Positions 31,389 through 34,749 of a DNA stretch of 64,000 nt are shown here, piece after piece; position 1 is the first letter of the stretch, and each line of letters begins with the position of its first letter. The notes beneath the pieces are model-generated. The model had not been told where the DNA came from, ran no database searches, and was given only the letters and a program-made list of their open reading frames with translations. Source of the DNA: Candidatus Zhuqueibacterota bacterium (lineage in GTDB: Bacteria > Zhuqueibacterota > Zhuqueibacteria > Zhuqueibacterales > Geothermadaptataceae); contig JAUZRQ010000089.1 of the NCBI GenBank assembly GCA_030950365.1, positions 1-64,000 on the forward strand, written 5' to 3'. A program made the translations under genes and the position numbers.

Positions 31389-31655
31389 GATTTTTAAAAT
31401 ATTTCCGTGGCGTTTTCTGTTGACATTAAATCTCCTAAAAAATGGTAACTAAACAAGTCAACCCTCAACCCGACTACCAGGCTATAACAATTATAGCTGC
31501 TAAAACAGTTTTTGCCGCTCTAATCTATTTATCAATAGACTATTGGAAGGGAAAAGGAGAATGGAATTTGATGGTCCTGGATTTTTTGCTTGACATTTTA
31601 GGCCGTTTTAATAAATTCACACCGGCCTGAGAAGAGGGAACCTATCTTGATAAAT
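31389..31655. other. AT-rich intergenic stretch left of oriC
   Basis: There is no convincing gene here. A 62-codon open frame from an ATG at 31442 has no ribosome-binding site and no recognisable family. The stretch is AT-rich and may be part of the origin. Confidence 0.4.
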
Positions 31656-31902
31656 TGTGGATAACTTTCACTACTTCATCCATCTCTTCCCCTAAAGTAG
31701 GGCAATTTTCACCGTTCTAAAATCTATTAGTGTGGATAACTTCAACAACGACCAACTTCTTTATTTGTTTTTATTAGCTTTAAATTACCCACATTATCCA
31801 CACGCATTTGTGGATAATTCAACTATCGAATAGGCAAAATTTTCCCAATCTATTAATTTTAATGCTGATATCTTATTCATCAATGGGGGGGGTTGTGAAT
31901 AA
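31656..31902. other. oriC part 1: DnaA-box cluster upstream of dnaA
   Basis: Perfect TTATCCACA boxes are at 31794-31802 (plus) and at 31656-31664, 31731-31739 and 31809-31817 (minus). Variants are TTACCCACA at 31785-31793 and TTATTCACA (minus) at 31894-31902. Boxes 31794 and 31809 form an inverted pair with a 6-base spacer. Position between rpmH and dnaA supports an origin or dnaA autoregulation. Confidence 0.88.
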
Positions 31903-31930
31903 CCTAATGCAAAAAGAGGGATTTACAGCA

Positions 31931-33283
31931 ATGCCAAATGCTGCAAGCGATGTTTGGACCAGGTGCCTCGATCTAATTCGAGATAACATCAACGACCAGA
32001 GCTTTTATACCTGGTTTAAACCTGTCGTGCCTTTGGAGCTGTCCGGGAATACATTAAAGTTACAGGTGCCCAGTCAATTTTTTTATGAATATTTGGAAGA
32101 TCATTACAGCGACCTGCTCAACCGATCGGTAAAGCAGGTCATTGGAGAAAGCGCGCGAATATCCTATTCGATCTATGTTAATGATCAAGAAAATACCCTG
32201 AATCTACCGTCGATGAATCGCCAGCGTAGGAGCAATGGCAGCACCCAAGAAAACACGCATCTGAGTTCCCGCTATACTTTTGAGAATTTTGTGGAGGGCA
32301 GTGGCAATCAATTTGCACGTGCTGCCGCTCTGGCTGTGGCCGAAGCGCCCGGTAAAACTTCCTTTAATCCTTTGGTGATTTATGGCGGTGTCGGATTGGG
32401 TAAAACACATCTCATTCAAGCCATTGGAAATTTTGCTTTGAAAAAGGGGGCGGTTAAAAAGGTCATTTATGTGTCCAGCGAAAAATTTACCATTGAATTC
32501 ATCAATTCCATTCAAAACAACAAAACCACCGAGTTCAGCAATATTTACCGCAACGTGGATTTGCTCCTCGTGGATGACATCCAGTTCTTTATCAACAAAG
32601 AACGAACGCAGGAAGAGTTTTTTCATACCTTTAATACACTGCACCAAAAAGGCAAGCAAATTGTGCTGTCTTCCGATCGGCCACCGAAAGACATTACAGG
32701 AATCGAAGAACGGCTGTTGTCCCGGTTCCAATGGGGTCTCGTCGCCGATATTCAACCGCCGGACCTGGAAACACGCATCGCTATTTTGCAGAAAAAGGCG
32801 GAGGAAAATGGCATCGAATTGCCTGGCGATGTGGTGCAGCTTATTGCCTACAATGTCACGTCCAACATTCGCGAGCTCGAAGGTTGTTTAATCCGCCTGC
32901 TGGCTTTTTCCTCTCTCAATGGTCGGGACATTAATCTCCAGCTTGCGAAAGAAGTATTGAAAGATGTGATCACGCAAAAGCAGAAACATATCACAATTGA
33001 AGAGATTCAAAAAATCGTTAGTGAATACTATCATATTCCGGATGACCTATTGCGCGCAAAGACCCGAAAAAAGGAAGTGGCCATCGCCAGACAAATTGCC
33101 ATGTATCTGGCCAAAAAACACACCAAGCATTCTTTGAAAACCATCGGGCTTCATTTTGGCGGTCGCGATCATAGCACGGTGATCCATGCGGTTAATACTA
33201 TCGAGGAATTCGCCAAAACGGATAAAGAAATCCAGGAAGACCTTGCAAATCTATCCCAAAAGATCGAACTATCGTCAATATAA
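31931..33283 (+). CDS. dnaA: Chromosomal replication initiator DnaA
   Basis: DnaA binds oriC and opens the duplex. From the ATG at 31931, which follows AGAGGG by 10 bases, it has 450 residues, the usual size. The frame is open up to a TTG at 31808, but that codon lies inside the DnaA-box cluster, so the long form is unlikely; an ATG at 31907 is another option. Domain I (WTRCLDLIRDNI), a short linker, the AAA+ domain (GGVGLGKTHLIQ, LLVDDIQFF) and the domain IV signature GGRDHSTVIHAV are all present. Upstream boxes suggest autoregulation. Confidence 0.97.
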   Translation: MPNAASDVWTRCLDLIRDNINDQSFYTWFKPVVPLELSGNTLKLQVPSQFFYEYLEDHYSDLLNRSVKQVIGESARISYSIYVNDQENTLNLPSMNRQRRSNGSTQENTHLSSRYTFENFVEGSGNQFARAAALAVAEAPGKTSFNPLVIYGGVGLGKTHLIQAIGNFALKKGAVKKVIYVSSEKFTIEFINSIQNNKTTEFSNIYRNVDLLLVDDIQFFINKERTQEEFFHTFNTLHQKGKQIVLSSDRPPKDITGIEERLLSRFQWGLVADIQPPDLETRIAILQKKAEENGIELPGDVVQLIAYNVTSNIRELEGCLIRLLAFSSLNGRDINLQLAKEVLKDVITQKQKHITIEEIQKIVSEYYHIPDDLLRAKTRKKEVAIARQIAMYLAKKHTKHSLKTIGLHFGGRDHSTVIHAVNTIEEFAKTDKEIQEDLANLSQKIELSSI

Positions 33284-33291
33284 TCATTGTG

Positions 33292-33330
33292 TTCACAGCT
33301 ACCCACATTGGCAATGTGGGTAGCTGTGAA
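33292..33330. other. 39-base near-perfect palindrome after dnaA
   Basis: The 19-base arm TTCACAGCTACCCACATTG (33292-33310) is exactly inverted at 33312-33330 around a single G. It begins 8 bases after the dnaA stop. There is no T-run, so it is a poor intrinsic terminator. Each arm holds a TACCCACA block like the variant DnaA boxes nearby. Confidence 0.85.
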
Positions 33331-33437
33331 TTGATGTTGAGGACATGTGCATAGAATGGAGTTTTTTAAAAATCATAGAAAGGCTGTAAATTTGGTTGCA
33401 ATTTGTCAACATATCAATAACAGTGCTGTCAAAAACG

Positions 33438-33612
33438 TTCACAGGATGTGAATAAAATCACGGCATCGTATTTATTTGATTTTAGCTGAAATTAGCGCAA
33501 ACGAATTTGGCCTTACCCACATATCCACATTCTCTATTACAATATCTATCTTTAAAATTATCTTGAATTATTTAGTTTACTTTTCTATTTTATAAAGATT
33601 TGATTTTTCTGA
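33438..33612. other. oriC part 2: DnaA-like boxes and AT-rich stretch before dnaN
   Basis: TTCACA-GGA-TGTGAA (33438-33452) overlaps a minus-strand TTATTCACA box (33447-33455). TTACCCACA at 33513-33521 abuts ATATCCACA at 33521-33529. The next 80 bases up to the dnaN ribosome-binding site are almost all A and T and are a good candidate for the DNA-unwinding element. The layout of boxes flanking dnaA resembles bipartite origins such as that of Bacillus subtilis. Confidence 0.65.
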
Positions 33613-33627
33613 ATCGGAGGCCCATAT

Positions 33628-34749
33628 ATGAAATTCAATGCAAACAAAGAATCTTTTGCGCAGAGTTTGCAAAAGGTGGTTGGCGCATTGCCTGCTAAAA
33701 CCACAATTCCCGTTTTGAATAATATTTTACTTCGCATTGAAGGAGACAAGGCCTTTTTCACCGGAACGGATCTAGAAATCTCCATTACGACCTCGTGTCC
33801 TGTGGAAGTGCTCGAAGAAGGCACGATTGCGGTTCCGGGCAGGCGCTTTTTTGATATCATCCGCGAGCTGCCTGACCTGCCGATCAGCCTCGAAAGTGAT
33901 CCGATGAACCATCTGCAACTCAAAAACGATAAAGGCGTCTATAAGTTCATTGGTGAAAGCGAGGACGAGTTTCCACACATCGAAGTTGAAGAAGCCGATT
34001 TTGAATTTGTGCTGCCGGCAGAAACCTTCAATCGCATGGTGGAGAAAACGATTTATGCAGTGAGTACGGACGAGCTGCGGGTCACCCTGACCGGAGTTTA
34101 TCTGCAAATCCTTCCGAATGAACTGCGCATGGTTGCTACTGACGGCCACCGATTGGCTAAAATATCCTATAAACGATTTCAGGGTGGCGAATCCACGATT
34201 TCGGTGATCCTACCGACGAAAGCGCTGAATCTTGTGACTAAAAATATTTCTCCGGAAACAGATTTGAAAGCGCTTATCAGCGAGAACCATGTAATTTTCA
34301 CATTTGATGAAACTAAAATTTATTCTAAGGTCATCAACGGGCAGTATCCAAATTATGAGCGTGTCATCCCCATCGACAACAATATTGAAATGCACGTGAA
34401 CCGTGAAATGCTGATGGCGGCGGTTCGGCGCGTGTCGATTTTTTCCAATCCATATACGCATCAGATCCGATTTTCAATCAGCCCATCCTCGTTGGTGGTA
34501 CAGGCCGAGGATGTGGAAATGGGTGGCGAAGCTCAGGAGGCCATTCCTGCGGACTATTCTGGCGAACCCATGGAAATTGGCTACAATGCGGCATATATCC
34601 TGGACATTCTGCGCCATATCGATAGCGAGAATGTGGTGTTTCGCCTTAAAAATCCAGAAACGGCGGCCATCATCGAGCCTTCGGAACAGCAGGAAAACGA
34701 GGATCTGATGAAACTGCTCATGCCCATTCGACTCAACGATGCTGTTTGA
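33628..34749 (+). CDS. dnaN: DNA polymerase III beta subunit (sliding clamp)
   Basis: The clamp encircles DNA and tethers the replicase. The 373 residues match the family, with the three repeated clamp domains and the C-terminal MPIRL motif (LMPIRLNDAV) that forms the protein-binding pocket; TDGHRLA is also diagnostic. GGAGG lies 9 bases before the ATG at 33628. It is followed 5 bases later by recF. Confidence 0.97.
   Translation: MKFNANKESFAQSLQKVVGALPAKTTIPVLNNILLRIEGDKAFFTGTDLEISITTSCPVEVLEEGTIAVPGRRFFDIIRELPDLPISLESDPMNHLQLKNDKGVYKFIGESEDEFPHIEVEEADFEFVLPAETFNRMVEKTIYAVSTDELRVTLTGVYLQILPNELRMVATDGHRLAKISYKRFQGGESTISVILPTKALNLVTKNISPETDLKALISENHVIFTFDETKIYSKVINGQYPNYERVIPIDNNIEMHVNREMLMAAVRRVSIFSNPYTHQIRFSISPSSLVVQAEDVEMGGEAQEAIPADYSGEPMEIGYNAAYILDILRHIDSENVVFRLKNPETAAIIEPSEQQENEDLMKLLMPIRLNDAV

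What the first reader, a model, noticed from the sequence alone, without database searches (positions are those of the whole stretch)
31656..33612. Apparent bipartite oriC flanking dnaA
Four perfect and two variant DnaA boxes lie upstream of dnaA, and a second group of weaker boxes plus an 80-base AT-only-like stretch lies between dnaA and dnaN. Bipartite origins are described in Bacillus and Helicobacter; the arrangement here (inverted box pair with 6-base spacer upstream, palindrome and AT-rich stretch downstream) deserves mapping.
Basis: partly seen in the sequence, partly recalled or inferred. Interest (0 to 1): 0.6.

Follow-up and report, generated by a model that had tools for sequence, protein, structure and literature searches.

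The report
Split chromosome replication origin around dnaA
This is the place where an uncultured bacterium starts copying its chromosome: DnaA-binding sites lie on both sides of the dnaA gene, and comparing relatives suggests that only the downstream side is the opening machine, while the upstream side is mainly dnaA's own control region.

Summary
Four perfect and two one-mismatch DnaA boxes lie upstream of dnaA; a weaker set plus an ~81% AT stretch lies between dnaA and dnaN. The contig's cumulative GC-skew minimum is at 33,306, between dnaA and dnaN. So this is oriC, in the known bipartite (Bacillus/Helicobacter) layout.

At 33,513-33,539 two overlapping head-to-tail boxes are followed by a 4-nt spacer and CTA-TTA, the geometry of the Bacillus "DnaA-trio" unwinding site. 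It recurs across the class: 36 of 63 genomes carry one copy each, with one control hit. In this genome only two consecutive trios are present, below the published minimum of three.

Relatives show that the halves are separable. One family lost boxes and trios between dnaA and dnaN and carries the module elsewhere; in most testable cases GC skew flips there, not at dnaA, yet the boxes upstream of dnaA remain. A genus in the window's own family lost the upstream boxes but kept downstream trios. The first upstream box often keeps a fixed spacing to the dnaA promoter. The upstream cluster is therefore probably autoregulatory first.

The parts
31590..31617 (+). dnaA promoter-like site TTGACA-16-TAAATT
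   Evidence: 10 of 12 matches; fixed 66-bp spacing to the first DnaA box in the window's genus and genus g3 of its family
31656..31664 (-). perfect DnaA box, first after the promoter
   Evidence: a perfect leftward box at -345..-230 in 41 of 49 genomes
31731..31739 (-). perfect DnaA box
31785..31793 (+). variant DnaA box TTACCCACA
31794..31802 (+). perfect DnaA box, left arm of inverted pair
31809..31817 (-). perfect DnaA box, right arm of inverted pair (6-bp spacer)
31894..31902 (-). variant DnaA box TTATTCACA
31931..33283 (+). dnaA (start 31931 inferred; 31907 possible)
   Evidence: Pfam Bac_DnaA, Bac_DnaA_C, DnaA_N
33292..33330 (.). palindrome after the dnaA stop; arms hold facing weak boxes CTACCCACA (33299+, 33315-); candidate distal DnaA sites of the core
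   Evidence: facing boxes at similar places after dnaA in family f7
33447..33455 (-). variant DnaA box TTATTCACA
33513..33529 (+). tandem DnaA boxes (33513-33521 TTACCCACA, 33521-33529 ATATCCACA, step 8 bp)
33530..33533 (+). 4-nt spacer (TTCT; usually GC-richer in relatives)
33534..33539 (+). two DnaA-trios (CTA TTA on this strand, 3'-GAT-AAT-5' on the other)
33530..33612 (.). AT-rich stretch, probable DNA unwinding element
   Evidence: 81% A+T over 33520-33599
33628..34749 (+). dnaN
   Evidence: Pfam DNA_pol3_beta domains

Best explanation
This is the chromosomal origin. The opening step most likely happens between dnaA and dnaN. DnaA binds the tandem boxes 33513-33529, helped by DnaA looped in from the distal boxes in the palindrome (33299/33315) and at 33447. 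It then extends as an oligomer across the 4-nt spacer onto the DnaA-trios at 33534-33539 on the complementary strand, and the AT-rich stretch to 33612 melts for helicase loading. The upstream cluster (31656-31902) lies just downstream of the dnaA promoter and is primarily DnaA's feedback and titration site; it may also loop to the core, but across the class the origin does not depend on it. Shown here: the sites, their conservation, the skew minimum and the separability in relatives. Inferred: DnaA binding, looping, melting and repression.
For: Boxes far above chance; GC-skew minimum at 33,306. Core geometry conserved: CTA/TTA at +4 after box 2 in 30 of 35 sites, +7 in 21, +10 in 15, shuffles at most 8; same geometry in six Bacillota loci; one hit per genome in 36 of 63 class genomes with one control hit, 25 of them directly after dnaA on the same contig. 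In family f8 the core is elsewhere and skew flips there in G047, G049, G036 and G053, while the boxes upstream of dnaA stay. Genus g2 lost the upstream boxes, keeps trios, and skew still flips at dnaA. Fixed promoter-to-box spacing in 27 of 50 genomes. Mechanism known from B. subtilis (PMC6669920, PMC8287927).
Against: Only two consecutive trios here, below the published three. No binding or melting data. G045 skew is inconclusive, G023 has no core found, and the G036 change is gradual. The spacing bands were chosen after seeing the data. In B. subtilis and H. pylori both halves are reported essential in vivo (PMC6669920), so the upstream half may matter in this species too.
Confidence: 0.78

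Rival explanations
1. A true bipartite origin as in H. pylori and B. subtilis: both clusters are required parts, with DnaA on the upstream cluster looping out dnaA to remodel the downstream unwinding site.
For: Both clusters are conserved in most genomes of the class; in H. pylori oriC1 and oriC2 interact through a loop (PMC8235120); both halves are reported essential in vivo in two species (PMC6669920).
Against: In family f8 the upstream cluster stays at dnaA although the core is 17 to 111 kb away or on another contig; genus g2 lost the upstream cluster while skew still flips at dnaA. The first upstream box is spaced to the promoter.
Confidence: 0.35
2. The unwinding site is upstream of dnaA, next to the inverted perfect pair, and the downstream boxes are minor.
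For: Highest-affinity boxes are upstream; 71% A+T around 31720-31879.
Against: No conserved trio motif upstream in the scan of both flanks and strands; the conserved core is downstream; the AT-richest stretch is downstream.
Confidence: 0.05
3. The origin is elsewhere, for example at the second DnaA-box cluster on contig C84, and the dnaA boxes are only regulatory.
For: C84 has three perfect boxes in about 310 bp, an arrangement conserved in several families.
Against: Skew minimum is at dnaA and there is no clean flip on C84. In G002, where the C84 counterpart and dnaA share one 1.3-Mb contig, skew flips at dnaA (722 kb) and not at the counterpart (184 kb). No trio core was found at C84.
Confidence: 0.03

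Closest known systems
Bacillus subtilis oriC (incA/incB upstream of dnaA; incC with DnaA-box #6/#7 and DnaA-trios between dnaA and dnaN)
   Same: Gene order, two box clusters, tandem boxes at step 8, 4-nt spacer, CTA-type trios, AT-rich DNA before dnaN
   Different: Fewer trios (two in phase here); far fewer boxes (B. subtilis has 13 and 7, PMC8235120); distal boxes about 70-220 bp away instead of within 100 bp; unrelated phylum
Helicobacter pylori bipartite oriC (oriC1/oriC2)
   Same: Two clusters around dnaA, unwinding only in the downstream one, trios after a GC-rich spacer (PMC8235120)
   Different: Standard TTATCCACA boxes and a tandem pair here; no H. pylori-specific ts boxes; looping not tested
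Origins located away from dnaA (such as E. coli oriC)
   Same: Family f8 of this class also has its core away from dnaA
   Different: Here bipartite sister families, the left-behind upstream cluster and at least two different new sites can be compared; the window itself keeps the core at dnaA

Membership tests
Bipartite oriC (two DnaA-box clusters flanking dnaA, one with the DUE) | Two box clusters separated by dnaA | tested here: met
Bipartite oriC (two DnaA-box clusters flanking dnaA, one with the DUE) | AT-rich unwinding element in one subregion | tested here: met
   33530-33612 by composition and neighbouring trios; melting itself not testable here
Bipartite oriC (two DnaA-box clusters flanking dnaA, one with the DUE) | Located at the GC-skew minimum | tested here: met
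   on the 98-kb contig only
Bipartite oriC (two DnaA-box clusters flanking dnaA, one with the DUE) | Both subregions needed in vivo and joined by a DnaA loop | not testable with these tools
   Comparative evidence speaks against strict need
Basal unwinding system (BUS) | DnaA box with at most 2 mismatches within 16 bp of trios, usually a tandem pair | tested here: met
   33513-33529, one mismatch each
Basal unwinding system (BUS) | At least three consecutive DnaA-trios (3'-NAN-5') | tested here: not met
   Two in this genome; 35 of 44 class sites have three or more. So: works like it, not filed as a formal member
Basal unwinding system (BUS) | DnaA-dependent strand separation that needs boxes and trios | not testable with these tools
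   Needs purified DnaA
datA/DARS-like regulatory locus (contig C84 element, not the window) | Non-coding DnaA-box cluster away from oriC | tested here: met
datA/DARS-like regulatory locus (contig C84 element, not the window) | IHF/Fis sites and effect on the DnaA nucleotide state | not tested
   No assay or motif model applied

The most novel reading that the evidence does not exclude
The 'bipartite' origin is two separable modules under different selection: a roughly 300-bp unwinding module (distal box, tandem boxes, trios, AT-rich DNA) that can leave dnaA and work as a monopartite origin elsewhere, and a promoter-locked DnaA-box cluster that stays with dnaA. One family of this class is a natural experiment in which the module sits in at least two different new gene neighbourhoods.
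Probability: 0.6. Interest if true: 0.62.

Novelty: new member of a known kind. Interest (0 to 1): 0.5.

Why it matters
Why some bacterial origins are split around dnaA is described as unknown in a review of origins (PMC4285127). Here one uncultured class gives a comparative answer: the unwinding core and the dnaA-promoter boxes are kept and lost independently, and in one family the core has left dnaA. That makes 'is the upstream half part of the origin?' directly testable with species pairs. The core pattern (one hit per genome, almost no control hits) is also a practical way to find oriC in fragmented genomes of this class.

Tried and rejected
Palindrome 33292-33330 as an intrinsic terminator: no T run follows and the scan found none. 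C84 cluster as a second origin: no clean skew flip and no trio core. Rfam and tRNA scans of the C84 element and counterparts: nothing. G045 skew was inconclusive. G023 (f8) shows no core at dnaA and none was found elsewhere. A change of DnaA-box specificity in genus g2 was considered: the helix-turn-helix region is essentially unchanged, so drift of its core boxes to TTATTAACA is unexplained. Naming the phylum: the literature search was a guess and was not used.

Full report
WHAT IS THERE. Upstream of dnaA are four perfect TTATCCACA boxes (31656-, 31731-, 31794+, 31809-) and two one-mismatch boxes (31785+, 31894-); the inverted pair has a 6-bp spacer. Between dnaA and dnaN are one-mismatch boxes at 33447-, 33513+ and 33521+, two weaker facing boxes inside a palindrome with 18-bp arms right after the dnaA stop, and a stretch of about 81% A+T before dnaN. 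Resampling gives 0.0035 perfect boxes expected upstream and 0.16 boxes with one mismatch or fewer downstream. The draft genome (4.98 Mb, 136 contigs) has 47 perfect boxes in all.

ORIGIN. GC skew changes sign at dnaA in the window. With the rest of the contig added (97,996 bp), the cumulative GC-skew minimum is at 33,306 and the AT and purine minima at 31,881-31,896. In a relative whose dnaA lies inside a 1.3-Mb contig (G002, same family), sampled 20-kb stretches are mostly negative before and mostly positive after dnaA.

THE MISSED CORE. Comparing the dnaA-dnaN gap in the class shows a fixed signature: two DnaA boxes head to tail with a step of 8 bp, a 4-nt spacer that is usually GC-richer, then CTA/TTA repeats. 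At 35 anchored sites CTA or TTA starts 4 nt after box 2 in 30, 7 nt after in 21 and 10 nt after in 15, while the offsets between them stay at 0-4; shuffles give 2.9 on average at offset 4 and at most 8. Six Bacillota loci fetched in the same session show the same geometry. This is the DnaA-box #6/#7 and DnaA-trio arrangement of Bacillus, in which DnaA on the boxes is guided onto single-stranded trios (PMC6669920, PMC8287927). In the window it reads TTACCCACATATCCACA-TTCT-CTATTA at 33513-33539.

A CAUTION. The published search rule asks for at least three consecutive trios. This genome has two (CTA TTA, then CAA); 35 of 44 class sites have three or more. I therefore say it works like that system and do not file this copy as a formal member.

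HOW SPECIFIC THE SIGNATURE IS. The 27-nt pattern with up to 3 mismatches hits 36 of 63 class genomes, once each, with one hit of the reversed control pattern. Comparing places with the dnaA table: 25 hits lie directly downstream of dnaA on the same contig; G011 and G054 lie just before dnaN at a contig end; G060 cannot be placed; the remaining eight all belong to one family (f8). Genomes without a hit include lineages with variant geometry (for example step 9 and spacer 3 in f5), degenerate boxes (g2), or missing contigs.

THE NATURAL EXPERIMENT. In family f8 the dnaA-dnaN gap is short (about 80-135 bp where measured) and has no boxes or trios. The core is elsewhere: beside an HD-domain (dGTPase-like) gene in G036, G042 and G045; beside a carbamoyltransferase gene in G047, G058 and G053 (Pfam run for G042, G045, G047 and G053; G036 by 75% identity, G058 by sequence reading); and 17 kb from dnaA in G049. 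The six loci laid out are complete modules, with a box 200-223 bp before box 1, the tandem boxes, trios and AT-rich DNA. G062 has a hit not examined further. GC skew: in G049 the minimum of the 45-kb stretch examined is at 2,126 kb, 11 kb from the module (2,138 kb) and 28 kb from dnaA (2,155 kb); in G047 the sign changes at about 53 kb, at the module, and not on the dnaA contig; in G036 it changes between 100 and 180 kb, as expected for the module at 174 kb and not for dnaA at 285 kb; in G053 it changes at 9 kb, at the module, on a short contig. G045 is inconclusive. The DnaA tree joins f8 (support 87/97) with f6 and f10 in a well-supported group (100/99); f6 and f10 keep the core at dnaA, so the bipartite layout is probably ancestral here and f8 lost it. 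Whether f8 moved once with later rearrangement or several times is open.

THE UPSTREAM HALF. All seven f8 genomes with a readable dnaA still carry two or three perfect leftward boxes upstream of it. A perfect leftward box lies 230-345 bp before dnaA in 41 of 49 genomes. Its distance to a TTGA -35-like element is 55-58 bp (mainly f6 and f8) or 64-67 bp (f1, f2, f7 and others) in 27 of 50 genomes, bands about one helical turn apart (bands chosen after seeing the data; shuffles reach at most 1, but shuffling also destroys the boxes). Conversely, genus g2 of the window's own family has no recognisable box upstream of dnaA, keeps CTACTACTA downstream with boxes drifted to TTATTAACA, and in G002 skew still flips at dnaA. 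The upstream cluster thus follows the dnaA promoter rather than the unwinding core. Repression of dnaA by promoter boxes is known in other bacteria (PMC8203912). A contribution to initiation, as in H. pylori and B. subtilis, is not excluded.

VERDICT. The finding is correct as an observation, and correct that this is oriC with boxes on both sides of dnaA. As a feature it is a new member of a known kind. The added value is the unwinding-core signature and the relatives that separate the two halves.

LIMITS. No experiment. Most genomes are fragmented drafts; skew was sampled. Family and genus labels are anonymous handles, and the phylum could not be named with the tools (nearest named DnaA matches are MAGs labelled only 'bacterium', Latescibacterota and Calditrichia).

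Noticed in passing
G000:C84:3044-3352 (L111); counterparts L133, L136, L137, L139, L141, L143, L144, L147, L201, L203: A second, non-coding DnaA-box element: perfect boxes in the same direction about 260-315 bp apart, one or both ends doubled at 11-13 bp, in AT-rich DNA, mostly near a DUF92 membrane-protein gene, found in families f1, f5, f6, f7 and f8. In G002 it lies about 540 kb from dnaA. A candidate datA/DARS-like regulator of DnaA; function untested.
   Followed up: partly
L085, L086 (genus g2, same family as the window): dnaA flanks: No recognisable TTATCCACA box upstream of dnaA; core boxes drifted to TTATTAACA with intact CTACTACTA trios, while the C84-type element keeps perfect TTATCCACA boxes and the DnaA helix-turn-helix is essentially unchanged.
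   Followed up: partly
window 33292-33330: Palindrome with 18-bp arms directly after the dnaA stop, built from facing weak DnaA boxes; partly kept in G001, and facing boxes at similar places follow dnaA in family f7.
   Followed up: partly
L067 (JAGVIM010000106.1): A contig labelled 'Nanoarchaeota archaeon' encodes a bacterial DnaA: probably a binning error in that public genome.
   Followed up: no
G023 (family f8; dnaA locus L117): A 96% complete genome with no core between dnaA and dnaN and none found elsewhere with the patterns used.
   Followed up: no
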